Origin: Silanimonas sp.
GTDB lineage: Bacteria; Pseudomonadota; Gammaproteobacteria; Xanthomonadales; Xanthomonadaceae
Direction of reading: 5' to 3'
DNA length: 49,192 bases
Assembly (NCBI GenBank): GCA_018334015.1
Contig: JAGXTI010000011.1
Span: forward strand, 1 to 49,192
Position numbers and translations under genes: made by a program. Positions within the stretch are counted from its first letter, which is position 1. Every line of letters begins with the position of its first letter. This document shows positions 22,217 to 40,849 of this stretch, one piece after another. The notes under the pieces were generated by a model that was given only the letters and a program-made list of their open reading frames with translations, ran no database searches and was not told the DNA's origin.

Positions 22217-22228
22217 ACACTGATCTGC

Positions 22229-25306: not shown

Positions 25307-26013
25307 TCAATGCCAACCCTCTTCGAAAACTCAGGCCAGTCGTTGTTTGCCTTCTCGTAGTCATCCGGCCGGCCGATGTCCAACCAGTACCCTTCGTGGA
25401 CAACGGTCGTCACCGCATCAGCGGACGCGAGGTATCCGAGGACGAGATGATCGAAACCGAATGCCTGGTCGGGAGGGATCGCATCAAGCACGCGACGCGA
25501 GACGGCGTAGATGCCCATGCTGACGAGGAATGGAATCGATGGCTTTTCTTCGAATCCCGAGAGAATGCCGGACTGATTTACCTGTAGCACGCCATAATCG
25601 ATTCGCTGCACACGACGAGAGGCGGAAATCGTGAAGAGGTGCCCTTCCGCAGAATGCTCATCCAGGAAGCAGCCATACGGCACGTCGCTGAGAATGTCCC
25701 CATTCATCACAAGGAAGTTGTCGGGCAGATCCGGGATCAGCTTCAAGGGACCCATGGTGCTGAGTGGCTTGGTCTCGAGCGAGTAGTCGATCTGGAGGCC
25801 CCACTTCGAGCCATCACCGAAGAATGCCCGGAAGATATCTGCCTGGTGATTGACTGCGAGGGTGATGTGGCCGAATCCCTGTGCTTTCAGCTGGCGGATG
25901 ATGATCTCAAGGATTGGATACTTGCCCAGCGGCATCAGTGGCTTCGGAATCGCAACGGTATATGGCCGCAAGCGGGTTCCAAGGCCGCCCGCAAGGATGA
26001 CGGCGCGTTTCAT
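25303..26013 (-). CDS. sugar-1-phosphate nucleotidyltransferase
   Basis: 236 aa, short NTP_transferase family member: AVILAGGLGTRLRPYTVAIPKPLMPLG, FLVMNGDILSD, GFEEKPSIPFLVSMGIYAV, and WLDIGRPDDYEKA. The form is like GDP- or CDP-sugar synthases without a hexapeptide tail. It activates a sugar phosphate for the downstream SDR enzymes; base and sugar are unknown. GGAG lies about eight bases before the ATG. It overlaps the next gene by four bases. Confidence 0.92.
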   Translation of the reverse strand: MKRAVILAGGLGTRLRPYTVAIPKPLMPLGKYPILEIIIRQLKAQGFGHITLAVNHQADIFRAFFGDGSKWGLQIDYSLETKPLSTMGPLKLIPDLPDNFLVMNGDILSDVPYGCFLDEHSAEGHLFTISASRRVQRIDYGVLQVNQSGILSGFEEKPSIPFLVSMGIYAVSRRVLDAIPPDQAFGFDHLVLGYLASADAVTTVVHEGYWLDIGRPDDYEKANNDWPEFSKRVGIE

Positions 26014-26042
26014 GTACGTGCTCCAGTAAATTTTGGAAGAAA

Positions 26043-28760
26043 CTACTTTAGTAATGCGATCAATAGCAGAAAAGCGGCTGAGAGCAAGCCCATCGCAAAT
26101 GCAAAAAACCCCAAGCGCAGTTCGGGTGGCGAGAAGCGGAATACGACATCTTGTTCTCCCACCGGAACGATCACACCAAGGTTGAGACCGTAGGCGCGAA
26201 AGACGGGCAAAGGCTGGTCGTTGGCTTTGGCCTGCCAGCCCCGGTGGAACGCAGACGCCAAGACGAGAGGATGCTCCTCACCTGGTGCGATCTTCAGCCG
26301 GATCCTCCCGGGTGTCCACTCAACCAGCTCGGCCGTTCGCTTGCCACGGCAAACCCCCTCACCGATCCCTGTATCGGGATTTACCAGAAGAGTCTTGTGG
26401 ACGTCGATGCGTTGTTCTCCGCCCGTCCAAAGGCGCGCACGCAGACTGTCTAGGGAAACCACTTCGATAACACAAGGCATCCAGTACCTCGCAGGCATCT
26501 GGTTGCGTCTGAGCAGGGCCGGAAGCCCTTGAATGTTCCGGAATGCAGAGAAGTATTCATCAAACCTGGGATGATTTGGCCTTGCAATGGTCGGCTGCCA
26601 GACGACACCATCAGAAGAGTGCTCCACCGATTGGACACGTAGTGGCGAGCCCGGAGAGACTGACTCCAAGGTCAACAGCCGCTGTTCGTCCGTCGCTCTG
26701 CCGTGCAGGTCTATAACCGCGGAGAACCAGTAGCCCGGAAAGCCACCAGCATCGAACGAAGTAGCATGAGCGGGCCGCGAATGTCTAACGACAGCGGCGA
26801 CGTCTGGACGTGCGTGCGCCCATTCTGCCGTATCAATACCTGCCTTTAGCACCCCAATATCTGCCGCCCGGCCTGCGGGTTTTCCTCCCGACAGGCGGGC
26901 CACCGGGGTACCATTCGTGAGATGTGTACTGCAGGAAAGATGGCTACTGACACGTAGCCAACGGGCCGATGCCGGCACCGGGATCGTAACCGCCTTTGGG
27001 GAGCCTTCCGCACCACAACCCGAGCCGATCAACTGGCTCTCCGCTCGCATTGGTTCGCCGGCCACCCAACCAACCCCAAGCACATCAAGAATGGCGGCAT
27101 CCGGTGGAGGAAGCGCGATGCCTCCGGCAGTCGTCGCGCGCGCGAGGTTCAGGTATAGCGGGTCTGCCAGTGGCCCATAGCCAGTCACGACAGGCACGCG
27201 ATGCATCAGGTTCGTGTTGGCCGTCAGCGGCGTGAGTGAGTCGGTTGAAGCGAAGCGCGGTAGGACCCGTCCGCCACTTCTGGCAATCTCCGAAAGCGCT
27301 TCCTTCGCATCCGGCCGCAATGCAAACTGCTCCAACGGAGGCGACGAACGCCATTCGTAGAACCAGCCGAAGCTCCCAAGATCGACCAGAAGCAGGAATG
27401 GGAGCATCGCAAGAGCGGTGCGCGTCCTTGTCTGGATGGCCCACCAAAGCGTTGCGACGGTGGCAAGGCCAAGGGCGAGTGGCAGACCGAGTCGCAGATG
27501 TGCTTGCCCCATCACCGCCAGTTCGGGCCAAGATCGCAGCGACTGCCACACAGCAAGGCCCGTCAGGAGCGCAGCGCCAATCCAGAACGCATTCCGAACC
27601 TTGCGACCACCAATCTCTGCACGCTCTAAGGCGGTGATCGCGATGGCGCTTGCCATGGCTAGAGAAATGCAAAGAACGATGCCGTAGCGTGCTTGAGCAC
27701 GGAACTGGCCGAAAACTGGCAGCTCGAACACCAATCGCCCCAGAGGTGTGAGGGTTCCGAACATCAGCAAGAGCGACACGAATGCCGCCAGAAGCCAGAA
27801 CCATGTTCGCGACATCAGGGATCGTGATACGAGAAGCACTGGCAACAGGAGCCACGGCAGCCAGCCCACATAGGCGGCAAGCTCGGTGAGATTGAAGGGG
27901 CCGGCGTAGGCTCCGAAGGGGCCGGCGGAGTCGGCTCCATAGATATTCGGGAAGAGCAGAAGGGCAAGTTCGTCTGGCGTGTAGCTAAAACTGTTGAAGT
28001 CAAGCTCGCTCCATGTTCCCCGCGCACTATCCAATGAAGCAGCATAGAGTCCTGCGAGGTTCGGACCTGCCAGCATCAACCCCACAGCGAAGAGGGCAGT
28101 GATGCGCCCAAGGTAGGCCATTCGAAGTGCACTAGCCTGGGCAGGCACCAGCGAAAGAGCGAAAAATCCGGCTAAGAACAGACCCATAAGCGATATTTGC
28201 GGGTGTCCACCGCCGATACACAGCCAAGTGCTGACCGCCCCTGCCAACACCGGCAGGGGGCCTTGCGATCTCGATGTCGCCGCTACAGACCAAAGGATCC
28301 ACGGGATCCAAGCGGCCGCATGGATCATCGTTACGTGCCCCAGATGAGCGACCATGAAGCCGCCAAACGCGACCATGAGTCCTGCGACGAAGGCTCCAAG
28401 CCGCGAGGCCCCAAGGGATCTCGCACATCCGAAAGCACCTAGCGCAGCTGCAACGTATGCGACAAGGACAAACAGCGGATAGGTGGATGTCAGCCAGAAG
28501 GGGATATAAAACAACTGGAACTGCGGATCCAATCCGGCCGCATAACCGCCATAAATATCCTCCACCCACATCGAGGGGTCGGCTCGATAGAAATTCGGCA
28601 GGTAAGAGACCGATCCATCTCCTGGTGCGAGTGATGCACCGGACAGCAACGCAGGTAGGAAATACAGTAGTACGGTGGCAGCAAGAGCCGCGGAGCACAG
28701 AAGATCCCTGAGCACCCCCGAGCCTTCCGTACCAACGCACTGAACCGCCCCGGCTTTCAT
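26043..28760 (-). CDS. YfhO-family polytopic membrane protein (probable GT-C glycosyltransferase)
   Basis: 905 aa. The N-terminal 480 residues carry about a dozen membrane helices. The first luminal loop has SYLPNFYRADPSMW and PQFQLFYIPFW, where GT-C enzymes have acidic catalytic residues. Two GG-rich loops (GGFMVAHLGHVTMIHAA; GGGHPQISLMG) are characteristic of YfhO proteins. The C-terminal 400 residues are a soluble, probably periplasmic domain. A last helix sits at the end (GFFAFAMGLLSAAFLLLIALLK). YfhO proteins in Gram-positives glycosylate wall polymers using lipid-linked sugar. Here it is the best candidate for the final transferase working with GtrA and the GtrB-like enzyme (inference). 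Start overlaps the decayed gene upstream by four bases. Confidence 0.85.
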   Translation of the reverse strand: MKAGAVQCVGTEGSGVLRDLLCSAALAATVLLYFLPALLSGASLAPGDGSVSYLPNFYRADPSMWVEDIYGGYAAGLDPQFQLFYIPFWLTSTYPLFVLVAYVAAALGAFGCARSLGASRLGAFVAGLMVAFGGFMVAHLGHVTMIHAAAWIPWILWSVAATSRSQGPLPVLAGAVSTWLCIGGGHPQISLMGLFLAGFFALSLVPAQASALRMAYLGRITALFAVGLMLAGPNLAGLYAASLDSARGTWSELDFNSFSYTPDELALLLFPNIYGADSAGPFGAYAGPFNLTELAAYVGWLPWLLLPVLLVSRSLMSRTWFWLLAAFVSLLLMFGTLTPLGRLVFELPVFGQFRAQARYGIVLCISLAMASAIAITALERAEIGGRKVRNAFWIGAALLTGLAVWQSLRSWPELAVMGQAHLRLGLPLALGLATVATLWWAIQTRTRTALAMLPFLLLVDLGSFGWFYEWRSSPPLEQFALRPDAKEALSEIARSGGRVLPRFASTDSLTPLTANTNLMHRVPVVTGYGPLADPLYLNLARATTAGGIALPPPDAAILDVLGVGWVAGEPMRAESQLIGSGCGAEGSPKAVTIPVPASARWLRVSSHLSCSTHLTNGTPVARLSGGKPAGRAADIGVLKAGIDTAEWAHARPDVAAVVRHSRPAHATSFDAGGFPGYWFSAVIDLHGRATDEQRLLTLESVSPGSPLRVQSVEHSSDGVVWQPTIARPNHPRFDEYFSAFRNIQGLPALLRRNQMPARYWMPCVIEVVSLDSLRARLWTGGEQRIDVHKTLLVNPDTGIGEGVCRGKRTAELVEWTPGRIRLKIAPGEEHPLVLASAFHRGWQAKANDQPLPVFRAYGLNLGVIVPVGEQDVVFRFSPPELRLGFFAFAMGLLSAAFLLLIALLK

Positions 28761-29136
28761 TTTGAACGAGCCCCAATCAGTTCAGACAGGAGCACTTGCG
28801 TGGCAGCACTCCATGACAGCAATTCTCCCCGCAGGCTCGATGCAGGACCCCGAATAGCGTCAGAGCACATCGCCCCTAAAGCCATCGCAAGTGCTTGGGG
28901 ATCTCCAGGAGCAAAGTAGTTAGCGGAGTCGCCTGCGATTTCGCGAAACACCGGAATATCGCTCATAAGCAGACGTGCGCCCAACCGAGCTGCCTCGACC
29001 ACAGAAAGTCCGTAGCTTCTGCGGCAGAGCACTGGAGAAGAACGCCTGCACTCTCAAGCAAACTAATCATTTCTTGGTCACTCGCATTATTAATCCAATG
29101 AAGGCGCTTGCCTCGTGTCGCGCTGAACTTCGACTT
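28757..29136 (-). pseudogene. decayed family 4 glycosyltransferase (frameshifted, 5'-truncated)
   Basis: One minus-strand frame carries KRLHWINNASDQEMISLLESAG and VLLQCSAAE. The conserved SYGLSVVEAARLGARLLMSDIP and VFREIAGDSANYFAPGDP continue in another frame. The switch is near 29010-29017, where GCAGAAGCTACGG would read AESYG if one A were restored. Upstream of about 29136 no glycosyltransferase homology is seen in any minus frame. About 125 C-terminal residues remain. It resembles the C-terminus of the neighbouring 831-aa protein (RLHWLESASD, SDIPVFREIAGG). Its stop still overlaps the yfhO start (ATGA). A sequencing error could explain the frameshift but not the missing N-terminus. Confidence 0.82.
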
Positions 29137-29342
29137 CTTCATGGAACCTCCTGGCGGGGAAAACATGCCAGAAAGCTCTACGCCTCAGGTGACCGAGAAA
29201 CTGGGGCAAGATCATCCATTGCGGATGTCCATCGTCCATCAGCAGGGCCTCCAGAATCTTCGAACTTCCTGATTAGCGCCGAACCCTCGTGATTTCGCAG
29301 CCTGAAGCACAAAATCACGTCAATCCGGCCGAAACTCACGCG
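29137..29342. other. intergenic remnant between two glycosyltransferase genes
   Basis: About 200 bases with no recognisable gene. One minus-strand frame is open from the GTG at 29339 for about 53 codons to a stop near 29178, but it matches nothing I know. It probably holds the eroded 5' part of the decayed glycosyltransferase. Confidence 0.5.
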
Positions 29343-31838
29343 CTATGCCACAACGGTCGTCAGCTGAAGCGCCGACGCGAGACGCTCCGTAGACTCTGCC
29401 CAAGTGAGGGAAATCAGCGTTGACGGCCGAATCCGAGCTTCCCCAACTGAACAATTCGCAAGAATGCTGGCAAGCGCCCCAGCATCACCTACTTCGAAGT
29501 ATGCCGCTTCGCCTCCTGCAATCTCGCGGAATACCGGAATGTCGCTGAGCAGGAGCGGGACTCCCATGCTGCCCGCCTCGACGACAGCGAGCCCGAAGCC
29601 TTCAAGTGCGGATGCTTGGATCAAGCAGCGACTTGACGCAAGAAGTGCCTTCACGTCCCCATCGGACGCAGACTCAAGCCAATGCAGTCGCCGGCCATAC
29701 TCGGCATGCCCGCGGAGTTCATTCGCCAGTGCCTCGACGTTCCACCCCTGCTTTCCGACAATGACGAGACTGAGCCGATGGCCGTCGCGCCAAAGATTCT
29801 CGAAAGCGCGGAGGATCGTGTCGTAGCGCTTCCGTGGCTCGACCGTACTCAGGGCGACGGCGTATCCGCCGGGCTGCAACCGCTCGACCAAGCCAATGAC
29901 CGCATGATCCGGCGCGGGCGATGCGCCGGATTCAAGATCACTGCCAAGGTGAACATGGCGACTCCAGAGCGGCCTTTTTCGCGCGATGTTAGTGTCGGCG
30001 ACGTAAGCGAGCAGATCTACTTCGGTTGCTCGGGAAATGCAGATGCAGCCATCCGCCGTGGCAACAACATAGTCCAACCATGCGCGGAACGCCGGCGGCA
30101 TCCCAGGGTCGCAATACTGAGGCGTCTGGACTGGAACCAGGTCGTAGACCATCCAAACCACCTCGCCGGATCGCTCCTGAATGTCACGATGGAAGGACGC
30201 GAAGCGCTCTGGAGACCACCACGACGAATCGACCATGAAGGCAAGGTCGTACTGACGGACATCCACCAGATCGTCGTCCCCTGGCAGGTGCACTCCAAAG
30301 CGATCACGGCAGTAATTCCGTGCGTATCTGATCCCGTCTGGCGTCCAGTGAATGGGCTCCACGTCGAACTGCCGCGTCTCGGCAGCAAGGCGGAGGAGAC
30401 CCGCGCAATAGTTTCTGACGACACGCTGGATGCCAGTGTTCGCACCCAGTCGAATCACTTCAGAGATGTCGACCAACACCCGCCGTCGTCCTGATAAAAA
30501 AACAGTCTCCAGTGCGCCTCGCAGAATCTCCAAATCAGACCCAGGAAGACGCTCTACGGCAGACGCCATGATCGCAACATCTTCGTTCGACGGTAGCCAA
30601 ACTTGGGTCGCACGATCAACTACTCGATGATTTGCCAAACCCCTCAGTGCATCGATCGCGATCCGGGCACACTTTCCCCAGTCGAATGAAAACGCGTGCC
30701 GCTGAGCACCCGCAACAAGCTCTCGTCGGAAATTGGAATCAACGAGCGCGCGGCAAAGTATGCTTGACGCTTCGCGCGTGTCGTCTGGGTTGAAGAGCGA
30801 GGAAGTCGTTTTCGCTACTTCCGGAAGCGCGCCTCGATCGGAGCTCAGTACTGCCGACCCATAGGCCATTGCTTCAATAACTGGCAGGCCAAACCCCTCG
30901 TAGAGCGATGGGAAGAAAAAGATCGTCGATGCTCGATATAGATCCTTCAAAACCACGTCGCTCACCGTTCCGAGAACCAGCACAGAGTCAGCGATGTTGC
31001 TGTACCGCCCCGCCAAGGCGGAAATCACGTCATCGCCCACTCGCGTTAATACAAGCTGATGCGACCTACGAAGATCCTCTGGTAATCCGGCAAATGCCTC
31101 GACGGCTCCAATACAGTTCTTCCGCCAATCGGCGTTACCTACCGTGAGAACAAATGGTTTTGTAATACCCAGCGCCAGAAGACGATCAGCAGTGCCTGAC
31201 CTGTCGACCTTACCGGGCGCACGGAACTCGCTATCTAGACCCGCCCCAATAACCGCAATCCGTTCGGGCTGTACTCCGAGAACGTCAATAAGATCTCGCT
31301 TCGTGGATTCGGAATTAGCCAGGTACAGATCGAATCCGGCGAACTCTTGCGCGCGCTTCCGGTACCACGCGGTATAAGGATGTCCGTCTGGGATGTAACG
31401 ATCAGGGAACAGCATTGGTATCAAGTCATGCGCTACCACCGCGCGGGGGATACCTGGCATCGCACCCTGTGAGTATCCAGAGACGAACCGGCCTCCACAC
31501 TCAAATGCACTGCATACCAGTAGCACGTCAGAATCGATGGCGGACACCAGCTTTGACTTCAACAGGCTGCCGCACGCGGAGATCTCTGATACAAACTCTG
31601 TGCAGTATTCGTCCGTGGGATAAAGATGATGGACGATCCGACCCGTCGCGACGCGCCCACGAATCGTTTGACGCGCTACCGACAGCCGGTCGGCGTCGAC
31701 GCCGTCCAGCAACAGGTCGAGCGCATCCCCCTGCCCCAACTGCCGAGCCATGGCCTCGACCAGGCTGAGCGAGTAGCGACCGATCCCGCGGTCGCGCGAA
31801 TCTGTCATGCAGGGCTGCATATCCACCGCAAGTTTCAT
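29343..31838 (-). CDS. double-domain family 4 glycosyltransferase
   Basis: 831-aa fusion of two GT-B glycosyltransferases. Domain 1 (about 1-400): MKLAVDMQPCMTDSRDRGIGRY, AVVAHDLIPMLFPDRY, LTVGNADWRKN, and the EX7E motif at Glu314/Glu322 (SLYEGFGLPVIEA). Domain 2 (about 450-831): VLVDISEVIRLGANTGIQRV, VWMVYDLVPVQ, LSTVEPRKRYD, and a second EX7E (ALEGFGLAVVEAG). Tandem GT-B proteins such as E. coli WbdA build repeating units of ABC-exported O antigens, often with mannose or rhamnose from GDP-sugars. The ATG at 31838 has GGAG ahead. It follows gmd by 31 bases. Base composition is A/T-richer than gmd. Confidence 0.9.
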   Translation of the reverse strand: MKLAVDMQPCMTDSRDRGIGRYSLSLVEAMARQLGQGDALDLLLDGVDADRLSVARQTIRGRVATGRIVHHLYPTDEYCTEFVSEISACGSLLKSKLVSAIDSDVLLVCSAFECGGRFVSGYSQGAMPGIPRAVVAHDLIPMLFPDRYIPDGHPYTAWYRKRAQEFAGFDLYLANSESTKRDLIDVLGVQPERIAVIGAGLDSEFRAPGKVDRSGTADRLLALGITKPFVLTVGNADWRKNCIGAVEAFAGLPEDLRRSHQLVLTRVGDDVISALAGRYSNIADSVLVLGTVSDVVLKDLYRASTIFFFPSLYEGFGLPVIEAMAYGSAVLSSDRGALPEVAKTTSSLFNPDDTREASSILCRALVDSNFRRELVAGAQRHAFSFDWGKCARIAIDALRGLANHRVVDRATQVWLPSNEDVAIMASAVERLPGSDLEILRGALETVFLSGRRRVLVDISEVIRLGANTGIQRVVRNYCAGLLRLAAETRQFDVEPIHWTPDGIRYARNYCRDRFGVHLPGDDDLVDVRQYDLAFMVDSSWWSPERFASFHRDIQERSGEVVWMVYDLVPVQTPQYCDPGMPPAFRAWLDYVVATADGCICISRATEVDLLAYVADTNIARKRPLWSRHVHLGSDLESGASPAPDHAVIGLVERLQPGGYAVALSTVEPRKRYDTILRAFENLWRDGHRLSLVIVGKQGWNVEALANELRGHAEYGRRLHWLESASDGDVKALLASSRCLIQASALEGFGLAVVEAGSMGVPLLLSDIPVFREIAGGEAAYFEVGDAGALASILANCSVGEARIRPSTLISLTWAESTERLASALQLTTVVA

Positions 31839-31869
31839 TGACACTCCTCTCCGTGCGAATCCGATTGGG

Positions 31870-32841
<972 letters not shown>

Positions 32842-33747
32842 TCAGTTGCTCCTTGCGTGTTCGAGAATGTCGGAAAGGGTGGTGTCGAGATCGAAGCGTG
32901 GTGCCCAGCCGGTGTCGGTGCGCAGTGCCGTGGCATCGCCGGCCATCCGCCGCTGCTCGGCGGGGCGAAGCTTGGTGGGGTCCTGGCGCACCTCCACCTC
33001 GACCCCCGCCAGCACGCACAGACGGGCGAGCAGGTCGCGGATGCGCCGCTCGATGCCGGAGGCGACCACGTAGGTGGCACCGGCCTGGCCGGCCCGCAGC
33101 ATCGCCGCGTAGGCCCCCACCACGTCGCGCACGTCGAGGAAGTCACGGGTGGTGTCGATGTCGCCGGCTTCGATCACCGCCGGCTGCCGGCCCGCGGCGG
33201 TCGCAACGACCTGGCGCGCCAGCGCGGGCAGCACGAAGCGGGCGTCCTGCCCTGGCCCGACGTGGTTGAAAGGCCGCGCGATCAGCGCATCGAGGCCCTC
33301 CGCACGGTGAAAGGCCAAGCACAACTGCTCGGCCGCGACCTTGCTTGCGGCGTAGGGGTTCCTCGGTGCGGTGGGATGCGCCGGACCGACGGGAAGCTCG
33401 GGCTCGGGCACCAGCCCGTAGACGTCGCCCGAACTGGCGTACAGAAAGCGCCCGCGAAAGCCCCTGCGGCGGAGGCCATCGAGCAGATGCACGGTGCCCT
33501 GCACATTGATGGCAAAGGTTTCGGCGGGGTCGTCGAAAGCGCGCGGCACGAAGCTCTGCGCAGCAAGATGCAGCACCTGCTCGGGCCGCAGCTCGTCGAG
33601 CACCGCGGCAACCGCCGCCGCGTCGCGCAGATCGACCCCGGCGGGCCAGGCAAGCAAGCGGGTTTCGCCAAAGCCGCCGGCCGCCACCGCAGCCGCCACG
33701 TGCCGGCCAACAAAGCCGCCGGCACCGGTGACCAGCAAGCGGATCAC
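32842..33747 (-). CDS. rmd: GDP-6-deoxy-D-mannose (GDP-4-keto-6-deoxymannose) reductase
   Basis: Reduces the Gmd product to GDP-D-rhamnose. 301-aa SDR: LLVTGAGGFVGRHVAAAV, LHLAAQSFVPRAFDDPAETF, YASSGDVYGLVPE, YAASK, RPFNHVGPGQDARF, TTRDFLDVRDVVGAY. Rmd rather than Fcl/WcaG is favoured because the PFNHxGPGQ and RDFxDVRD pattern matches RmlD-like Rmd enzymes. ATG overlaps the methyltransferase stop by four bases. Together with gmd it points to D-rhamnose in the polymer. Confidence 0.93.
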   Translation of the reverse strand: MIRLLVTGAGGFVGRHVAAAVAAGGFGETRLLAWPAGVDLRDAAAVAAVLDELRPEQVLHLAAQSFVPRAFDDPAETFAINVQGTVHLLDGLRRRGFRGRFLYASSGDVYGLVPEPELPVGPAHPTAPRNPYAASKVAAEQLCLAFHRAEGLDALIARPFNHVGPGQDARFVLPALARQVVATAAGRQPAVIEAGDIDTTRDFLDVRDVVGAYAAMLRAGQAGATYVVASGIERRIRDLLARLCVLAGVEVEVRQDPTKLRPAEQRRMAGDATALRTDTGWAPRFDLDTTLSDILEHARSN

Positions 33748-35636
33748 GGGCGAAGCCCCAGCACGGCGTAATCGGGGGCGGCGGTGAAGTGTTCCGACAG
33801 GGTATTGAGGATGGCCGCCCCGGGCAGGTCGGCGGCGACGGGATCAAGCCGGCCCAGTTCGCGGCCGATCGTCAGGCGCTTGATGCGCACGCCGTGGAAG
33901 CCGCGCGCCTCGACGATCCAGCGCAGGGTTTCGGGCGGGATCGGGTTGCGGTGGGTCGGGTCGGTGTAGAACGTGCAGGCGCCCACCAGCAGGTTCTCGG
34001 GGTTGGGAGTTTCCAGCAGCAGCAGGCCGCCCGGACGGAGCACGCGCTTGGCCTCGTCGAGCAGCGCGATGACGGTCTCGAACGGCAGGTGCTCAACCAG
34101 ATGCATCGAGGTGATGGCCCCGACGCTGCACTCCGGCAGGCGGCGCAGGGCCAGCAGCACATCGGCGTGCTCCACGTCGAAACCCCGACCGCGGCAGGAC
34201 TCGACGAACAGCCGGTTGAGGTCGACGCCGCGCGCATGCATCTGGGTGTCGCGCAGGAGTTCCAGCCACTCGCCGCGGCCACAGCCCAGATCGAGCACCG
34301 GTGCCTCGCGGGTGCCCGCGCCGGCCTCGCGCAAGTCGTCGAGATAGGGTTCGACGCGACTCAGGATAAGCTCGCGCGAGCCGCGGAAGCGGTCCTCGAA
34401 GGCGGCGTAGATGGCGTCGAGCGATTCGGTTTGGGCGGATTGCTCCTCGCGCTCGGCGGCCAGCAGCTCTTCGACCGGCCGGATGCGGGCGTCCAGACCG
34501 TCGATCCGGGCGAGTCCGGTCTGGAGGTCCAGACCGTCGAGGCGGGCGAGTTCGGTCTGGAGGCTTGCCTGCGCGGCCTCCAGCCGCTTGACCTGGCTCA
34601 GCAGCTCTTTCTCCAGGCGCTGACCCGCCTCGTCGGCACTCGCCGCCCGTGCCGCCACCGGGTCCAGGGCCTTGCGCACGGCGGCCAGCTCGCTGCGCCA
34701 GCCGCTTTCGATGCTCTCGAGCCGGGTTTGCAGAGCGCTCACTTCGCCACGCCAATCGGTTTCGATACTGCCGAGCCGGGCTTGCAGATCCTGGACCTGC
34801 TTGTGGGTGGCCTCGCTGTGGTCGCGGAGGCGGGGCAATTCGGCCTCCAACAGCGCAAGCCCCGATTGCACGCTGCCGAGCTGAGCCTCCAAGGCCGAGG
34901 CGCGAGCCTCGGCATGGGCGGTGCGCGATTCAAGGGCGCGGATGCCCTGCTCCTGCTGCTGCAGCCGCGACTGCTGGGCCTGCCACGCGGCATCCATCTG
35001 CTCAAAGGCTTGATTGAGCAGTTGGCCGGCCTCATGCAGTTCGCGGGCATGGGCCGCATCCTGCGATTGCAGACGCTGGTGCGATGCACCGAGTCGAAAC
35101 AGACCATGCACCCAGCGCAGCATCGGGCCCAGCACCGGCTTGCGCTGCCAGCGATGCAGGGTGTAGGGCACGAGCAGGCCGGCCACATGCACCTCGTGGC
35201 GCATGCCCTCGGGCGAGAAACGGATTTCACCGAGCACTTCGATTTTGCTGAGCTCGCCGCGCCGCAGGCGGCCAAGGTAATGGTCCAGACCATCCGGGTC
35301 GGGAGAGCGGCGAAGCAGGATGCGGTAGCACTGGTCGACGAAATCGCGATCGGAAAACGCCAGCAGATCGGCCACGGTGTACTGGCTGCGGTAGGGCAAC
35401 CGGGGCACAGCCGGAGACCAGCGCGGCAGGGGCGGAATCCCGATGGCCGGCAAGGCCTCACTCGCATTGCTTGCCATCGCTGCGGTCGCCGGAGTGGTGG
35501 AACGGGCCTGTTTTCGGCGTGCGACTTCCTCGCGCACCCGCGCCATCACTTCGTCCACGTCCAGACGGGGCGGAGATGCAGGCACGCTTTTATTTGTGCT
35601 CTCGCGCAATTGGCGCATTTCTTCGTCAAGGTTCAT
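33744..35636 (-). CDS. DUF4214 - coiled-coil - methyltransferase (candidate O-antigen chain terminator/ruler)
   Basis: 630 aa in three parts. Residues about 85-145 form a DUF4214-like domain (YTVADLLAFSDRDFVDQCYRI, then RRSPDPDGLDHYLGRLRRGE). About 185-405 is a long, probably dimeric or trimeric coiled coil rich in Gln, Glu, Leu and Ala. Residues 420-630 are a SAM methyltransferase (VLDLGCGRGEWLELL at 447-461, GVDLN, MHLVEHLP, LETPNPENLLVG, FYTDPTHRNPIPP). The combination recalls WbdD of E. coli O9a, where a coiled coil sets O-chain length and a terminal modification stops growth. Domain order differs and no kinase domain is present. Operon position directly after wzm, wzt and a glycosyltransferase fits that job (inference). 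Confidence 0.9.
   Translation of the reverse strand: MNLDEEMRQLRESTNKSVPASPPRLDVDEVMARVREEVARRKQARSTTPATAAMASNASEALPAIGIPPLPRWSPAVPRLPYRSQYTVADLLAFSDRDFVDQCYRILLRRSPDPDGLDHYLGRLRRGELSKIEVLGEIRFSPEGMRHEVHVAGLLVPYTLHRWQRKPVLGPMLRWVHGLFRLGASHQRLQSQDAAHARELHEAGQLLNQAFEQMDAAWQAQQSRLQQQEQGIRALESRTAHAEARASALEAQLGSVQSGLALLEAELPRLRDHSEATHKQVQDLQARLGSIETDWRGEVSALQTRLESIESGWRSELAAVRKALDPVAARAASADEAGQRLEKELLSQVKRLEAAQASLQTELARLDGLDLQTGLARIDGLDARIRPVEELLAAEREEQSAQTESLDAIYAAFEDRFRGSRELILSRVEPYLDDLREAGAGTREAPVLDLGCGRGEWLELLRDTQMHARGVDLNRLFVESCRGRGFDVEHADVLLALRRLPECSVGAITSMHLVEHLPFETVIALLDEAKRVLRPGGLLLLETPNPENLLVGACTFYTDPTHRNPIPPETLRWIVEARGFHGVRIKRLTIGRELGRLDPVAADLPGAAILNTLSEHFTAAPDYAVLGLRP
34491..34562 (-). 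repeat. 36-bp tandem duplication in the coiled-coil region
   Basis: Two near-identical in-frame 36-bp units (34491-34526 and 34527-34562) encode the 12-residue repeats LQTELARLDGLD and LQTGLARIDGLD in the methyltransferase/coiled-coil protein. Three to four bases differ. Confidence 0.9.
34679..34786 (-). repeat. 54-bp tandem duplication in the coiled-coil region
   Basis: Two adjacent in-frame units of 54 bp encode the 18-residue repeats LQARLGSIETDWRGEVSA and LQTRLESIESGWRSELAA (residues about 284-319). They are more diverged than the 36-bp pair, so this is an older duplication. Confidence 0.85.
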
Positions 35637-37080
35637 ACGGGTCTGGCGTGGTGGCGGCTTGCATCAGGGCGCGCGCTGCATCGGCCCAGGTGCTGCCGGA
35701 AACGGAGGGAACGAGTCGCTTGGCTAAACCGGGGCTCGTCAAAAGGCTGGCAAGCGAGGGCTGGTTCGGGCCGCCGAAGAACAGGGCCCGGGGACCGGCC
35801 GCTTCGCGGAAAACCGGAATATCGCGCAGCAGCAGGGGCAGGCCGACGGAACGGGCCTCCGCCACGGGCAGACCATACCCCTCGGCATGCGAACCGAGCA
35901 GCAAGGCATCGTGCGAGGCATAGGCCTGGCTCAGTTGGACATCGCCAGCATCGGGATACCAGCGCAGTCGTGGCTCGCGCCGCAGCAGGGCTTCGATCTC
36001 CGTCACAAGAGCCTCCATCCCCCACCCGGGACGGCCCACCAGGGTCCACTGCAGTTCGGCACCACCCGCCCAAGCCTGCTTGAAGGCGCTCAGCAGTTCG
36101 TCATGGCCCTTGCGCGGCTCGATCGTACCGACCGTCAGGAGCCGCAGGCTGCGAGAGGCTGCCGGCGCTTGCGTCTCGCCAGTGAGGGGGTAGGCCGGTG
36201 CATCACCACCCAGCGGGAAGGCCAGGGTGCGAGGACTCGGGATACCGCGTGCGTTTGCTTCAAGACGAGTTCGTACCGCTTCGGCGGTGGTTCTGGAGAT
36301 GCAGCAGAGCCGGTCGGCGTGATGCAAGGTGGCCTGCCACCAATCGGCAAACCGCTGCACCGAATCTGCGGGAAACCAATCGGAATGTTCGAGCGGCAGG
36401 AGGTCGTAGATCACTGCGGCAACCCGCACACCGGCATCACGCAGCCCTGCCAAGGCCGAGGCGTGCGCCTTGGCATGATCGCGAACCAGATCGAGAGCGA
36501 TGAAGACATCGCCAGGATCAGGGCGACAGCGGGCATCGGGCCCGAAAGAACCGGGCGGGCGGCCGGTGAACTCGGCGAGAAAAGCCCGGGCATGGGCATA
36601 GCCGCCATCCGCGGCCAGCCGGACCGGTTCGACCACCCAGCCGGCCGGCGGCTCGATCAGCCATTCGCCCAGAATGCGGCGGCTCACCCGGGCACAACCA
36701 CCCCACGGCGAGCCGGAGGCCAGGCAGGTGACATCGACCAGCAAGGTCCGCAGCCGCTGGCCGGATGGAGGCACTTCGCCGCGGTAGGGACTTGGAGGGG
36801 CCGGCAAGGTATCGGCCGGACGCAAGGCGGGTGCCGACCAGGCCGGCGCAGGATGCCAGCGCGCATAGAAACGGCGCAAAGGACGGGTCAGGGCCCAGCT
36901 CCGGCTCTCGCGCATCTGCTGGAGCTGGGCTGCGAGCACAGCTTGCTGCTGGCAGAGCTCGGCCAGCAGCAATCGTTCGCGCGATTCGCCCAACACCGTG
37001 CTGCCGTTGACGGCTGTAGGCGGCATGGCCTCAAGGGCTTCAGGACAGGACGGCGCTTGGGAGCGGATGCGCATGGACAT
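35626..37080 (-). CDS. family 4 glycosyltransferase with N-terminal coiled coil
   Basis: 484 aa. Residues about 25-70 are a short helix ending in the SRSWALTRPLRRF motif seen in O-antigen glycosyltransferases. A GT-B enzyme follows: RTLLVDVTCLASGSPWGGCARV, AVIYDLLPLEHSDWFP, LLTVGTIEPRKGHDEL, WTLVGRPGWGMEALV, HAEGYGLPVAEA (EX7E-type) and RDIPVFREAAGP. Probably adds a polymer or primer sugar in the cytoplasm before Wzm/Wzt export. ATG at 37080 (or 37074) lies inside the 3' end of wzt, a 41-base overlap; there is no obvious ribosome site. Its 3' end overlaps the next gene by 11 bases. Confidence 0.88.
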   Translation of the reverse strand: MSMRIRSQAPSCPEALEAMPPTAVNGSTVLGESRERLLLAELCQQQAVLAAQLQQMRESRSWALTRPLRRFYARWHPAPAWSAPALRPADTLPAPPSPYRGEVPPSGQRLRTLLVDVTCLASGSPWGGCARVSRRILGEWLIEPPAGWVVEPVRLAADGGYAHARAFLAEFTGRPPGSFGPDARCRPDPGDVFIALDLVRDHAKAHASALAGLRDAGVRVAAVIYDLLPLEHSDWFPADSVQRFADWWQATLHHADRLCCISRTTAEAVRTRLEANARGIPSPRTLAFPLGGDAPAYPLTGETQAPAASRSLRLLTVGTIEPRKGHDELLSAFKQAWAGGAELQWTLVGRPGWGMEALVTEIEALLRREPRLRWYPDAGDVQLSQAYASHDALLLGSHAEGYGLPVAEARSVGLPLLLRDIPVFREAAGPRALFFGGPNQPSLASLLTSPGLAKRLVPSVSGSTWADAARALMQAATTPDPYEP

Positions 37081-38287
37081 GGATTTTAACGGGGATCCAG
37101 GAGCAGCCAACAAAGGTGGGCAGATCGAGATTAACCACTTGGAACACCAGTGCAAGATCACGCCAGTCGAAGTTGCTGGAGAGATGGGTGTCCTCGGCGT
37201 GCAGGGCCAACGACACCGAATAACTGCCCGGGCCGAGATGGGCCGGCAGCTGCACGTCGAAACGCCAACGGCTGTCCGCGCAGGGCGAAACCACGACCTG
37301 CTCGGTGTGGTGGGTGTTGGTGCCGAACACCGGCTGCCCGAGGCGGTCACGCAGCATGAAGCCGAACACCAGGGCCGGAACCGATTCGGTGACCTCGACC
37401 TCGGCACGGATGCACAGCGGCTGCCCGGATTTGGCGATATCGACCGGCTTACCGGCGGCATCGAGCAGGCTGATGTCGAGGAATCGGGCAAACCCGTTGC
37501 CCGAGTGGGTGGCCGCCTGGCCCGCCCGCCGCTCGACCCGCACGGTGCCCGCCTGTTGCTCGGCGATCCGGGCGTTGTAGTAGTCGAGCACCTCGGACGG
37601 CTCACCCTCCATGGCCATGCGACCGGACTCGAGCAGCACGGCACGGTCGCACAGGGAGCGCACCGCCCCCGGATCGTGCGAGACGAAGAGCAGGGTGGTG
37701 CCCAGCTCGCGGAACCCGCGGATGCGCTGGAAGGACTTGTGCACAAAATAGGCATCGCCCACCGAAAGCGCCTCGTCGACGATGAGGATATCGGGCCGCT
37801 GCGCGGTGGCCACGCTGAACGCGAGCCGGACCACCATGCCACTGGAATAGATGCGCGTGGGCTGGTCGAAATAGTCGCCGATCTCGGCGAAGGCCTCGAT
37901 CTCGGGCAGCAAGGATTCGGCCCGCTCGGCATCGATGCCCTGCATGGCCAGCACATGCCTGGCGTTCTGCCTGCCGGTCAACTCGCTGTTGAAGCCCAAC
38001 CCGAGTTCCAACAGGGCCGAGACCGGGCCTGCGACCTGAACCTGACCCTCGTTGGCACGGGTGGTGCCGGTGATGATCTTGAGCAGGGTGCTCTTGCCGG
38101 CGCCGTTGGCACCGATCACGGCAACGGCCTCGCCGCGCTCGACGCGGAAAGACACGCCGCGCAGCACCCAGTGCTCCTCCAGCGGCGGGCGCTTGAAACC
38201 GAACCAGCCGGCCACCCGCTCCCATTCGCTGGCATAGCGGGTGTAGCGCTTGCCGATTCCGTCGACAACCAGTACGGCGCGGGTCAC
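37040..38287 (-). CDS. wzt: O-antigen ABC exporter ATPase with Wzt_C carbohydrate-binding domain
   Basis: 415 aa. ATPase domain 1-250: Walker A GANGAGKST at about 59-67, signature YSSGM near 148-152, Walker B ILIVDEALSVGD, switch His in LFVSHD. C-terminal Wzt_C beta-sandwich (about 270-415: FMLRDRLGQPVFGTNTH, LPAHLGPGSYSVSLAL). In E. coli O9a this domain recognises the capped non-reducing end, so it fits with the downstream methyltransferase. The GTG start overlaps the wzm stop (GTGA). Confidence 0.96.
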   Translation of the reverse strand: MTRAVLVVDGIGKRYTRYASEWERVAGWFGFKRPPLEEHWVLRGVSFRVERGEAVAVIGANGAGKSTLLKIITGTTRANEGQVQVAGPVSALLELGLGFNSELTGRQNARHVLAMQGIDAERAESLLPEIEAFAEIGDYFDQPTRIYSSGMVVRLAFSVATAQRPDILIVDEALSVGDAYFVHKSFQRIRGFRELGTTLLFVSHDPGAVRSLCDRAVLLESGRMAMEGEPSEVLDYYNARIAEQQAGTVRVERRAGQAATHSGNGFARFLDISLLDAAGKPVDIAKSGQPLCIRAEVEVTESVPALVFGFMLRDRLGQPVFGTNTHHTEQVVVSPCADSRWRFDVQLPAHLGPGSYSVSLALHAEDTHLSSNFDWRDLALVFQVVNLDLPTFVGCSWIPVKIHVHAHPLPSAVLS

Positions 38288-39084
38288 AGCACGTCCACCA
38301 GGTCGGGCGAGGCGCGACGGAACACCCGCCAGGCCAAGAGGTTGAGCAAGACCGCCAGCAGGGCCACGGCCGCCACCCCGAGCCCGGGACCACGGCCGAA
38401 CAGCAGGGCGTCGTGGTAGGCCATGACCATGATCGCCATCGGATTCAGCAGAATCCAAGATTCGAGAGCGTCAGGCAGCACTTCGACCGGGTAGACGATG
38501 GGCGTGAGCCAGAAGCCGAACATCAGCACCACCCCCAGCACCTGCCCGACATCCCGCAGAAAGACATTGAGCGTGCCGACCAGCACACCAAAGCCGAGCG
38601 CCAGACCCGCGATGATCAGGGAGTAGAAGGGAATCCAGAGCCAGTGCAGGCCGGGTGGGAAATCGAGCAGCGGCAGCGCCACAAGAAGGATGAGCATCAG
38701 CACCAGATGGCCGACACCCACCGACCCCAGCACCACCAAGGGCAGAGCCGCACGCGGCACGGCGACTTTCTTGAGGGCGCTGGCATGGTCGATGAACACC
38801 GTACCCAGACGCTGGGTGGTCTCGGCGAACAGCGTCCAAGCCAAAAGGCCGGTGAGCAAGTAGCCGGCGAAGCCGAAGGGGCTTTCGACGCCCGGGATGC
38901 GGGCGGCCAGCACTTCGCCCAGCACCAGGGAAAACACCACGACCATGGCCAGCGGCTGCAGGACCAGCCACGCCAGGCCGATACGGCTGCGGGCGTAACG
39001 GCTGGCGAACTCACCCCTGATGGCCGAGGTGATGAACCCCCGGTAGCGCCACACCCCCCGGCACAACTCGACAGCACTCGACAC
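38284..39084 (-). CDS. wzm: O-antigen ABC-2 type permease
   Basis: 266-aa inner-membrane permease with six helices: FASRYARSRIGLAWLVLQPL, TGLLAWTLFAETTQRLGTVF, FGFWLTPIVYPVEVLPDAL, LLNPMAIMVMAYHDALLFG. With Wzt it exports finished undecaprenyl-linked O chain. GTG start at 39084 with AAGGAAG about eight bases ahead. First gene of the 13-member minus-strand operon (including the decayed one). It is preceded by about 70 bases that would contain the promoter, then a ManC stub. Confidence 0.94.
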   Translation of the reverse strand: MSSAVELCRGVWRYRGFITSAIRGEFASRYARSRIGLAWLVLQPLAMVVVFSLVLGEVLAARIPGVESPFGFAGYLLTGLLAWTLFAETTQRLGTVFIDHASALKKVAVPRAALPLVVLGSVGVGHLVLMLILLVALPLLDFPPGLHWLWIPFYSLIIAGLALGFGVLVGTLNVFLRDVGQVLGVVLMFGFWLTPIVYPVEVLPDALESWILLNPMAIMVMAYHDALLFGRGPGLGVAAVALLAVLLNLLAWRVFRRASPDLVDVL

Positions 39085-39153: not shown

Positions 39154-39240
39154 TTAAAACATCTGAAGAACAGGCCTGAGACGACCTCTCAGATACAACC
39201 GGGTGCCGCTGCCGCCGCTGAGGATGACCGGGACGATCAT
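39154..39240 (-). pseudogene. 5' stub of a ManC-type nucleotidyltransferase
   Basis: 28 codons: [15 protein letters not shown], the exact start of a mannose-1-phosphate guanylyltransferase (intact manC here reads [17 protein letters not shown]). Then an unrelated tail (YLRGRLRPVLQMF) and a stop. The ATG overlaps the vapC stop (ATGA) and has AGGAAGA ahead, so the start region is intact while the rest of the gene is gone. It marks a deletion or recombination endpoint at the edge of the polysaccharide locus. Confidence 0.85.
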
Positions 39241-39674
39241 GCGCGTTCTTCCTGGAGTAATCGGGCCTGCACGCCGAACCGGAGGGCGGCCTTCGCAAGG
39301 AGGGTATCGAAGGTGACGAGCGCCAGCCCCTGCCGGGCCGCCATCGCGAGATGCAGCGCGTCGCCGGCGCGCAGCCCCCCGGCCGGGTCGGCCACCAGCC
39401 GTGCGGCGAGTGCGAAATCGGCCTCCTCGATGCTGACGCGGCGGCAGGCCTGCTCGATGGTGGCGCTGAACAGTGTCATCGCCTCGGCCGCCTGCGCGGC
39501 ATCGAGCTGGCCGCTGCGCTGTTTCATCGACAGCGCGCTGGAAAACTCGGCCTGCACCCAGCCGCTGGCGTGCAGCGTGCCGGCCGTCTGTTTCTCCAGC
39601 CATCCTTGAGCGAGGTCGGTGAAGGGTTCGCGGCAGAGCGCGGTCACCCAGACACTGGTATCGACATAGACCAT
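39237..39674 (-). CDS. vapC: PIN-domain toxin (VapC family)
   Basis: 145 aa, probable ribonuclease toxin. PIN acidic residues are present: Asp5 (VYVDTSVWV), Glu43 (QAEFSSAL), Asp105 (LRAGDALHLA) and Asp123 (LVTFD). The partner antitoxin gene ends 11 bases upstream. The stop overlaps the ManC stub start. Confidence 0.93.
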   Translation of the reverse strand: MVYVDTSVWVTALCREPFTDLAQGWLEKQTAGTLHASGWVQAEFSSALSMKQRSGQLDAAQAAEAMTLFSATIEQACRRVSIEEADFALAARLVADPAGGLRAGDALHLAMAARQGLALVTFDTLLAKAALRFGVQARLLQEERA

Positions 39675-39684
39675 CGCCCGAGAC

Positions 39685-39930
39685 TCAGAAGCGCGCGTCG
39701 TCGCGCAACTGACGGATCAGCACGGAGGCCGGCGCCTGCTCGGCCTGCGCCGCGGTCACCCGGCGGAACGCAGCGACATCGACGCGACGGGGCTTGTCGC
39801 GCACCTGCTGGATGCGCGCCACCGGCTTGCCGTGACGGGTGATGACCACCTCATCGCCATGCGTCACGCGCTCGGTCAGCTCCGAGAGGCGGGCCTTGGC
39901 TTCGGCGAGACTGAGGGTCAGGATGCTCAT
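39685..39930 (-). CDS. Phd/YefM-family antitoxin
   Basis: 81 aa: LSLAEAKARLSELTERVTHGDEVVITRHGKPVARI is the Phd/YefM N-terminal DNA-binding fold. The C-terminal part (VDVAAFRRVTAAQ) would bind and block the toxin. ATG at 39930 starts the conserved fold; the in-frame extension to 40104 crosses the etfB promoter. A palindrome just upstream is a likely self-regulation site. Confidence 0.9.
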   Translation of the reverse strand: MSILTLSLAEAKARLSELTERVTHGDEVVITRHGKPVARIQQVRDKPRRVDVAAFRRVTAAQAEQAPASVLIRQLRDDARF

Positions 39931-39939
39931 GGGCGAATG

Positions 39940-39959
39940 GTGACCATAAAAATAGTCAC
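39940..39959. promoter_or_regulatory. palindrome ahead of the antitoxin gene
   Basis: Arms GTGAC (39940-39944) and GTCAC (39955-39959) flank a 10-base A/T-rich centre, ending 10 bases before the antitoxin start. On the minus strand the centre reads TATTTTTATG and may include the -10. The size and position fit an operator bound by the toxin-antitoxin complex. Confidence 0.55.
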
Positions 39960-40046
39960 GGGCAAGGCCCGCGACGGCGGCCGCCCGGTGCGGTTCGGCA
40001 ACCGCCGCGTCCACTCCGCCCCCACGACCGCGGGTGGCGCAGCCGC

Positions 40047-40052
40047 TAGAAT
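40047..40052 (+). promoter_or_regulatory. possible -10 box of etfB
   Basis: TAGAAT about 50 bases before the etfB start in GCTAGAATTGGC context, like the -10 boxes before proS and the aminotransferase gene. Confidence 0.4.
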
Positions 40053-40102
40053 TGGCAGTCCGCCGCGCTCCGCGGCCGCCCTTCCCCATCGACACGAACC
40101 CC

Positions 40103-40849
40103 ATGAAGATCCTCGTCGCCTACAAGCGGGTGGTGGACTACAACGTCCGCATCCAGGTCAAGCCGGACGGTTCCGGCGTCATCACCGAGGGCGTCAAGCT
40201 CTCGCCCAACCCCTTCGACGACATCGCCCTCGAAGAAGCGCTGCGCCTGCGCGAGAAGGGCCTCGCCACCGAAGTGATCGTCGCGACGATCGCGCCGGCC
40301 GACGCCCAGCCGCATTTGCGCAACGGCCTCGCCATGGGTGCGAACCGCGCCATCCACATCGTCACCGACAGCGCCGTGCAGCCGCTCACCGCCGCCCGCG
40401 CTCTGCTCAAGCTGGTCGAGCGCGAGCAGCCGGGCCTCGTGCTGCTCGGCAAGCAAGCCATCGACGACGACAGCAGCCAGACCGGCCAGATGCTGGCCAC
40501 ACTCTGGGGCCGCCCGCAGGCCACCTTCGCCTCGAAGGTGGACGTGGCCGGCACCGTCGCCACCGTCACCCGCGAAGTCGATGCCGGCCTCGAGACGCTC
40601 GAAGTCGACCTGCCCGCCGTCATCACCACCGACCTGCGCTTGAACGAACCGCGCTTCATCAAGCTGCCCGACATCATGAAGGCTAAAGCCAAGCCGCTGG
40701 AGACGATCGCGCTTGCCGAGCTTGGCATCGAGGCCGCGGATTTCCTCACGACCACGCACTACGCACCGCCGCCCAAGCGCAGCAAGGGCGTGATGGTCAA
40801 GGACGTCGCCGAACTGGTGGCGCTGTTGAAGCAGAAGGGCCTAGCCTAA
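40103..40849 (+). CDS. etfB: electron transfer flavoprotein beta subunit
   Basis: 248 aa. Starts MKILVAYKRVVDYNVRI, then NPFDDIALEEALRLREKG, QAIDDDSSQTGQMLA (AMP-binding loop) and PAVITTDLRLNEPRF, all typical of EtfB. Forms the FAD/AMP heterodimer with EtfA, receiving electrons from acyl-CoA dehydrogenases and passing them to ETF-QO. Confidence 0.97.
   Translation: MKILVAYKRVVDYNVRIQVKPDGSGVITEGVKLSPNPFDDIALEEALRLREKGLATEVIVATIAPADAQPHLRNGLAMGANRAIHIVTDSAVQPLTAARALLKLVEREQPGLVLLGKQAIDDDSSQTGQMLATLWGRPQATFASKVDVAGTVATVTREVDAGLETLEVDLPAVITTDLRLNEPRFIKLPDIMKAKAKPLETIALAELGIEAADFLTTTHYAPPPKRSKGVMVKDVAELVALLKQKGLA

What the first reader, a model, noticed from the sequence alone, without database searches (positions are those of the whole stretch)
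33744..35636. Candidate O-antigen length ruler with a new domain order: DUF4214 - coiled coil - methyltransferase
Seen: a ~220-residue coiled coil joins an N-terminal DUF4214-like domain to a C-terminal methyltransferase, in an operon with Wzm, a Wzt carrying a carbohydrate-binding tail, and glycosyltransferases. Known: in E. coli O9a, WbdD caps the chain and its coiled coil measures chain length; Wzt_C recognises the cap. Inference: this protein does a similar job with methylation only (no kinase domain) and the catalytic domain at the opposite end of the rod.
Basis: partly seen in the sequence, partly recalled or inferred. Interest (0 to 1): 0.72.

Follow-up and report, generated by a model that had tools for sequence, protein, structure and literature searches.

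The report
Reversed sugar-chain capping and measuring rod
This gene very probably makes the enzyme that puts a methyl cap on a bacterial surface sugar chain so that it can be exported; the enzyme sits at the far end of a long coiled rod whose length differs widely between species, which offers a natural test of whether such rods measure chain length.

Summary
[quoted passage not shown] The reading as a methyl-only chain terminator is well supported by comparison. Of 29 further Lysobacteraceae loci re-read, 27 hold the full protein, and 27 of 27 have Wzm, 26 Wzt_C. The window's Wzt_C keeps 7 of 10 positions of the Aquifex pocket that binds a 3-O-methyl sugar cap. In 46 sampled Wzt_C loci, the five with this methyltransferase are the five most Aquifex-like. 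The same methyltransferase family also stands before the coil in other Wzm/Wzt loci, so the order is permuted. Methyl-only capping is already known (O8 WbdD, WsaE); the anchor-rod-catalyst order was not in the passages I could read. The ruler function is inferred: spacers run from 59 to 335 residues and no coil column is conserved, but lengths are not heptad-quantised, some family members lack Wzt_C, and no structure could be predicted. New variant of a known kind.

The parts
33744..35636 (-). DUF4214 - coiled coil - methyltransferase protein, 630 aa (the finding)
35193..35384 (-). DUF4214 region, residues 85-148; 21 columns at least 85% conserved in 28 proteins
35079..35192 (-). basic/hydrophobic segment, residues 149-186 (conserved G153-L154, G170, W175, R181); amphipathic moment 0.56 at 166-183, not higher than pieces of the coil (0.59); proposed membrane-facing or docking segment
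   Evidence: role inferred
34425..35078 (-). coiled coil, residues 187-404; about 33 nm if fully helical
34491..34563 (-). 36-bp tandem duplication inside the coil-coding DNA (2 copies, 91% matches)
33747..34424 (-). SAM methyltransferase domain, residues 405-630; closest solved structure by sequence 3dli
38284..39084 (-). Wzm, ABC transporter permease
37040..38287 (-). Wzt ATPase with Wzt_C (Wzt_C 37094-37510); closest solved: Aquifex aeolicus Wzt; GTG start chosen by me where it overlaps the wzm stop
35626..37026 (-). GT4 glycosyltransferase (start chosen by me at an ATG; the open frame is longer)
32842..33747 (-). epimerase/dehydratase-family reductase, predicted rmd; overlaps the finding's last 4 bases
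   Evidence: a gene named rmd stands beside gmd in the X. albilineans LPS cluster (PMC3542200, passages)
31870..32841 (-). GDP-mannose 4,6-dehydratase (gmd)
   Evidence: TIGR01472 409 bits, just under its cut-off of 415
29343..31838 (-). protein with two GT4 domains, candidate polymerase (start chosen by me; the open frame begins at 31898)
   Evidence: role inferred

Best explanation
It is the chain terminator of an ABC-transporter-dependent O antigen, probably rich in D-rhamnose. The N-terminal DUF4214 plus basic/hydrophobic segment docks at the membrane or on the GT4 polymerase; the oligomeric coil projects from there; the C-terminal methyltransferase at the far end O-methylates the non-reducing terminal sugar, most likely at O3, once the chain reaches it. 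The methyl cap stops growth, and Wzt_C binds it and admits the chain to Wzm/Wzt. Shown by sequence and comparison: domains, locus, co-occurrence, methyl-cap type of Wzt_C, coil nature and variable coil length. Inferred: the cap chemistry, docking by DUF4214, oligomer state, and that coil length sets chain length.
For: Lysobacteraceae census: 31 of 297 genomes match at E<=1e-20. Of 29 loci re-read (31 less the window and G013, the latter read), 27 hold a full-length protein; of those 27, 27 have Wzm, 26 Wzt and Wzt_C, 27 a match to RMD and 26 to GMD in the fetched ~13 kb (RMD and GMD queries cross-match, so these two counts are not independent). Wider sets: 13 of 18 loci of this methyltransferase family have Wzm and/or Wzt nearby against 1 of 13 weaker methyltransferase hits, Fisher p=0.0007. 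Wzt_C: the solved sequences that match it at E<=10 are four Aquifex Wzt entries and one chance cupin; 7 of 10 pocket positions are identical to Aquifex (positions from PMC9445017). In a sample of Wzt_C genes drawn by Pfam alone (46 of 49 matches examined), the five methyltransferase-positive loci, the window among them, rank 1-5 by Aquifex CBD score; by Wzt ATPase and Wzm they rank less tightly, L069 being 30th and 18th. They keep 6-9 of the 10 pocket positions and four of five keep H350, which 0 of 41 others do. Permuted order: 8 of 10 methyltransferase-first members have a coil-like run after the domain, 6 of these 8 beside Wzm/Wzt. Spacers 59-335 residues, coil periodicity p<0.05 in 23 of 29, control 0 of 29. 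Coil: 0 of 218 columns at least 85% conserved, against 27 of 102 in the N-terminal module and 76 of 226 in the methyltransferase.
Against: Linked genes travel together, so co-occurrence is not proof. If two control loci with only a generic ABC ATPase hit (L089, L090) are counted, the control is 3 of 13 and p=0.011; several control contigs are short. 5 of 18 family members have no Wzm/Wzt nearby, and of the five genomes holding them (G701, G369, G370, G168, G472) only G370 has any Wzt_C; L067's Wzt and L073's Wzt show no clear Wzt_C match. The pocket is not peculiar to this family: two methyltransferase-negative loci keep 6 of 10 and two keep 5, and W362 is kept in 8 of 41. G062 has an Aquifex-like Wzt_C but no strong family methyltransferase in the fetched DNA (17 bits at best). 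Spacer lengths are not whole heptads apart (35 of 280 differing pairs at 50% identity or more). Coil periodicity is not significant in 6 of 29. G918 and G983 keep DUF4214 in the same rmd-gmd slot without a methyltransferase, though both genomes have Wzm and Wzt_C elsewhere. WsaE's methylation was chain-length independent in vitro (PMC2943079). No structure prediction was possible.
Confidence: 0.62

Rival explanations
1. It is the methyl-capping terminator, but the coil is only an oligomerising or tethering linker: capping sets export competence, and length is set by enzyme ratio or kinetics rather than rod length.
For: No heptad quantisation of length overall; no conserved coil column, as expected also for a neutral linker; WsaE's methylation was chain-length independent in vitro (PMC2943079, passages).
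Against: Coil periodicity is kept in 23 of 29 relatives although the sequence is not; the analogous coils of WbdD and WbbB are reported rulers (PMC11231755, PMC5082667, passages).
Confidence: 0.27
2. It methylates internal or side-chain sugars of the polymer, or its lipid-linked adaptor, and does not terminate chains.
For: Substrate cannot be read from sequence; five of 18 family loci lack Wzm/Wzt nearby and four of the five genomes that hold them have no Wzt_C.
Against: Pairing with methyl-cap-type Wzt_C and with Wzm in 27 of 27; a long coil is called a characteristic marker of terminators (PMC11231755, passages).
Confidence: 0.1
3. The coil organises the polysaccharide machinery (scaffold for GT4 proteins and transporter) and the methyltransferase is inactive or secondary.
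For: Two relatives keep DUF4214 without methyltransferase in the same slot; the neighbouring GT4 also seems to begin with a helical stretch (by eye).
Against: 50 methyltransferase positions are at least 95% conserved in 28 proteins, and the SAM motif is intact.
Confidence: 0.08

Closest known systems
WbdD of E. coli O9a / O8 (Klebsiella O3 / O5)
   Same: Methyl-type cap, long coil, ABC-transporter export with a cap-reading Wzt; O8 WbdD is a simple methyltransferase (PMC3482155, PMC11231755, passages)
   Different: WbdD is catalytic domain first, coil and polymerase-docking region last; O9a has a kinase; WbdD was not among the 26 solved sequences matched at E<=1
Klebsiella O7 ORF6, O4 ORF7 and O12 WbbB terminators
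   Same: Terminator module held apart from polymerase by a coil in ABC-transporter loci (PMC11231755, abstract and passages)
   Different: Catalytic terminator is N-terminal; DUF4214 has 0 occurrences in that paper (listing); O7 has a kinase, O4 and O12 add Kdo
WsaE of Geobacillus stearothermophilus
   Same: Methyl-only cap on a rhamnan with wzm and wzt in the cluster (PMC2943079, passages)
   Different: N-terminal methyltransferase fused to two glycosyltransferase domains; 2-O-methyl rhamnose
Aquifex aeolicus Wzm/Wzt system
   Same: D-rhamnose/D-mannose O antigen, 3-O-methyl cap, closest solved Wzt_C with shared pocket residues (PMC9445017, abstract and passages)
   Different: Its capping enzyme was not examined here; 'methyltransferase' occurs 0 times in that paper
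Legionella Lcin_0519-like kinase-methyltransferase proteins
   Same: Methyltransferase, often a coil, in part beside Wzt/Wzm homologues (PMC9758233, passages)
   Different: Carry a kinase domain; a predicted C-terminal coil
LPS clusters of X. albilineans (probably XALc_2708) and X. vasicola
   Same: Same gene place beside gmd, rmd, wzt, wzm (PMC3542200, PMC4235730, passages)
   Different: Given there only as LPS-cluster genes, no role in the passages seen; matching XALc_2708 to this gene is my inference from gene order; spacer only 66 residues in the X. vasicola protein and in L222, which looks identical to the X. albilineans one in the alignment

Membership tests
Coiled-coil chain terminators (WbdD type, as described in PMC11231755) | Locus encodes Wzm and Wzt with C-terminal binding domain | tested here: met
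Coiled-coil chain terminators (WbdD type, as described in PMC11231755) | Extended coil in the protein that bears the terminating enzyme | tested here: met
   coil; that the enzyme terminates chains is inferred
Coiled-coil chain terminators (WbdD type, as described in PMC11231755) | Catalytic module on the N-terminal side of the coil | tested here: not met
   the methyltransferase is C-terminal, residues 405-630
WbdD proper | Kinase domain between methyltransferase and coil (O9a; absent in O8) | tested here: not met
   no kinase family (25 of 36 shown)
WbdD proper | Methyltransferase related in sequence to WbdD | tested here: inconclusive
WbdD proper | Trimer; recruits the polymerase; sets modal length | not testable with these tools
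   structure tool off; needs experiment
DUF4214 (PF13946) | Score above gathering cut-off | tested here: met
   32.4 against 23.2 bits
Class I SAM methyltransferases (Methyltransf_23) | Score above cut-off and glycine-rich SAM motif | tested here: met
   68.8 against 27 bits; DLGCGRG fits the E/DXGXGXG motif given in PMC11231755
Methyl-cap-reading Wzt_C (Aquifex type) | Pocket residues that hold the 3-O-methyl sugar | tested here: met
   7 of 10 identical, T346 to S, L300 to M, I299 (a backbone contact) to F; binding itself not tested
Wzy-dependent loci with Wzz length regulator | Wzy/Wzz genes in the locus | tested here: inconclusive
   none in Pfam scans of 17 window ORFs; other ORFs, and the relatives' loci, were not scanned for them

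The most novel reading that the evidence does not exclude
DUF4214 plus the basic/hydrophobic segment is a membrane/polymerase anchor for a class of chain-length rulers built the other way round from WbdD, and Lysobacteraceae hold a natural series of rod lengths (66 to 335 residues, about 10 to 50 nm if wholly helical) with the same anchor, cap enzyme and cap reader, so that O-chain length should scale with rod length across species.
Probability: 0.4. Interest if true: 0.72.

Novelty: new variant of a known kind. Interest (0 to 1): 0.52.

Why it matters
If true, the capping rod has been built both ways round from the same methyltransferase family, so what selection keeps is distance between anchor and cap enzyme rather than domain order. 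It gives DUF4214, a term found in only 4 papers of the searched library (listing only), a testable role. And it offers a ready-made comparison in which coil length varies about five-fold within one bacterial family while both ends stay conserved, so the molecular-ruler idea can be tested by comparing O-chain lengths of existing harmless species, without engineering.

Tried and rejected
Whole-heptad length steps: looked for as a signature of a rod. At 50% methyltransferase identity or more, 35 of 280 differing pairs are multiples of seven, about chance; at 65% or more 6 of 11, at 70% or more 3 of 4, but these are few events, +42 between G013 and three other Xanthomonas proteins giving three of them. 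Rejected as evidence. In that call L209, L211 and L234 were dropped because the motif did not match, and the start motif was misplaced in L208 and L232; one search used alignment ends instead and still leaves out those three. By the domain gap the window's spacer is third longest of 28 (after L232 and L209).

Co-loss of methyltransferase and transporter in G918 and G983: looked clean within about 6 kb, but both genomes have Wzt_C and Wzm elsewhere, so not used.

The Wzt_C profile was built partly from loci it scored, so circular; replaced by the Aquifex CBD alone. The pocket alignment still uses that profile, and is poor for distant Wzt_C. The window is one of the five in the 46-locus ranking; without it four of 45 rank 1-4. 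Three of the 49 rows were fetched later and show no family methyltransferase and no Aquifex-CBD match. In the weak-hit control, L086 (contig-end fragment of a true member) was dropped, leaving 13 of 14. L222 was left out of the tree as a near copy.

Gave little: the genome-contig scan found 2 loci, having chosen DUF4214-side peptides; PHROGs; tRNAs, none. Literature: the 2020 review on O antigens 'made to measure', Hagelueken 2015 and the P. aeruginosa CPA gene paper (all recalled by me) are not held, so a prior description of this order there cannot be excluded.
Full report
What is there. The minus-strand ORF 33744-35636 encodes 630 residues. Pfam finds DUF4214 (94-144) and a SAM methyltransferase (436-582), both above cut-off. 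Residues 187-405 have the hydrophobic rhythm of a coiled coil (peak 3.55; 0 of 2000 shuffles reach it at that period; p=0.001 with the period free). Between DUF4214 and the coil lies a conserved basic/hydrophobic segment; its amphipathic moment (0.56 at 166-183) is no higher than that of coil pieces, so membrane contact is a guess from its make-up. The closest solved structure to the methyltransferase by sequence is 3dli (E 2.7e-34).

The locus. Going downstream: Wzm, Wzt with Wzt_C, a GT4 protein, this gene, a predicted RMD, GMD, a protein with two GT4 domains. This gene overlaps both neighbours, by 11 and 4 bases. Beyond wzm lie an antitoxin-toxin pair and two CoA-transferase genes, etfB/etfA-like ORFs and a cystathionine-lyase-like ORF (named from my reading of the translations). 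In xanthomonads the LPS locus lies between etfA and metB (PMC524487, PMC2238763, PMC3542200, PMC4235730; passages read); here both stand on the wzm side. The tree tool places the two named relatives in Lysobacteraceae, and the window's genome is of the same held family as G013. GMD scores 409 against a cut-off of 415; RMD is a prediction from its family, its place beside gmd, and the X. albilineans annotation.

How widespread. In 297 genomes of the family, 31 match at E<=1e-20, from 13 of 54 genera. Of the 29 loci I re-read in stretches of about 13 kb (the window and G013 apart), 27 hold a full-length DUF4214-coil-methyltransferase, and of these 27, 27 have Wzm, 26 Wzt and Wzt_C, 27 an RMD match and 26 a GMD match. 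In the exception, G823, a Wzt lies about 12 kb from Wzm on the other strand. The other two (G918, G983) have DUF4214 without methyltransferase. Outside the family the order is seen in G455 and G658, and as two ORFs in G753 (L066).

Permuted order. Elsewhere the same methyltransferase family stands at the N-terminus: 10 members, of which 8 (L067, L070-L072, L074, L076-L078) show a coil-like run after it, two of them with a glycosyltransferase match further on (L071, L077); 6 of the 8 lie beside Wzm/Wzt. L073 and L075 are a third kind, with the methyltransferase last after an N-terminal part without DUF4214 or a coil-like run. In a tree of 56 methyltransferase domains, 46 rows (one of them a weak hit) form a well supported branch; 30 Lysobacteraceae DUF4214-first rows form one well supported branch; 9 of 10 methyltransferase-first rows group with L075, with lower support (80/88). 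DUF4214-first needs two changes on that tree, so it is clustered by descent but a single origin is not shown.

Specificity control. Of 18 loci of the family (E<=2.4e-37 or better to the query), 13 have Wzm and/or Wzt within the fetched DNA; of 13 weaker methyltransferase hits, 1 has; p=0.0007. Counting two controls with only a generic ABC ATPase hit gives 3 of 13 and p=0.011. Five family members lack them: L070 and L079 lie on contigs of 5.2 and 8.6 kb; L068, L075 and L076 were extended by 5 to 15 kb a side without finding any. Of the five genomes concerned, only G370 has a Wzt_C anywhere, so some members must work without this kind of cap reader.

The cap reader. PMC9445017 (abstract and passages) shows that Aquifex Wzt_C binds 3-O-methyl-D-mannose, a cap of a D-rhamnose/D-mannose O antigen. 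The solved sequences matched by the window's Wzt_C at E<=10 are four Aquifex Wzt entries and one cupin at E 0.97. At ten positions discussed in that paper the window has F M R N S A H H W V where Aquifex has I L R N T A H H W V. I then drew Wzt_C genes by Pfam alone: 44 of 229 class-level genomes, 49 matches, 46 of them examined first. Five have the methyltransferase family (257-299 bits; the next best locus has 95), and these are ranks 1 to 5 of 46 by similarity to the Aquifex domain alone. That would be 1 in 1.37 million for random ranks, or 1 in 149,000 leaving the window out; linked genes are not random, so these are only guides. The ATPase and permease give a looser ranking: L069 is first by cap domain but 30th by ATPase and 18th by permease, while L147 and L141, close by ATPase and permease, have neither. 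The five keep 6 to 9 of the ten positions; of the 41 others two keep 6 and two keep 5, and one of these (L136) has a large protein with a weak N-terminal methyltransferase match (42 bits). H350 is kept in 4 of 5 and 0 of 41, W362 in 5 of 5 and 8 of 41. The sixth by rank, G062, has no strong family methyltransferase in reach.

The rod. Measured from the same anchor point, spacers are 59 to 335 residues in 29 proteins, the window's (223) being second longest of those measured; by the domain gap it is third longest of 28. 23 of 29 are periodic at p<0.05 and 17 at p<0.01, against 0 of 29 for equal-length pieces of their own methyltransferases. In 28 aligned proteins no coil column of 218 reaches 85% identity, while 27 of 102 in the N-terminal module and 76 of 226 in the methyltransferase do. 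A 36-bp tandem duplication sits in the coil DNA. Related sequences in the set are not independent (L228 and L229 are identical in the methyltransferase). Length differences are not multiples of seven more often than chance (35 of 280).

How it most likely works. [quoted passage not shown] The chain grows at the membrane-side polymerase; when its end reaches the methyltransferase it is methylated, stops growing and is taken by Wzt_C. Methyl-only capping has precedents: O8 WbdD (PMC3482155, passages) and WsaE (PMC2943079, passages).

Novelty. The terminators in the passages read of PMC11231755 have the catalytic part before the coil. A search for DUF4214 found 4 papers, none with LPS in its title or in the listed start of its abstract. 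The searches listed no title or abstract start that mentions this order; full texts beyond the passages named were not read. Key subscription papers are not held, so I claim novelty only within what I saw. I rate it a new variant of a known kind.

Limits. No structure could be predicted, so coil oligomer state, docking by DUF4214 and active-site fit are inference.

Noticed in passing
window 39237-40104 (-): Phd/YefM-type antitoxin followed by a PIN-domain protein, between wzm and the etf-like genes.
   Followed up: no
L031 155-2496 (own genome, contig C9 end): A second copy, 88.5% identical in DNA, of the 3' part of the methyltransferase plus rmd and gmd, without DUF4214 or coil in the contig; it may be a remnant of an earlier LPS locus or an assembly effect.
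   Followed up: partly
window 22000-32000: G+C falls to about 0.58-0.60 from 0.67-0.69 in the wzm-to-gmd part, suggesting that the far glycosyltransferase half was acquired separately.
   Followed up: no
L235 5927-6970 and L236 5874-6566: DUF4214 proteins without methyltransferase in the same slot before rmd in G918 and G983; G918 has its Wzm and an Aquifex-like Wzt on another contig.
   Followed up: partly
L245 10989-11381: A small separate DUF4214-like ORF directly before a long protein with several GT4 matches in G823, as if DUF4214 also serves glycosyltransferases there.
   Followed up: no
L080 8639-10384 and L081 8504-11074: Other proteins with a DUF4214-like stretch late or midway in the chain (441-528 of 581; 453-547 of 856) beside GT4 genes (Pfam confirmed L080 only just and L081 not).
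   Followed up: no
window 26043-28760 (-): 905-residue hydrophobic protein with a weak YfhO match below its cut-off, a kind often linked to sugar side-branch transfer (recalled).
   Followed up: no
L073 8989-10290 and L075 8980-10335: Members of the same methyltransferase family with the enzyme at the C-terminus but an N-terminal part that matches neither DUF4214 nor a coil.
   Followed up: no
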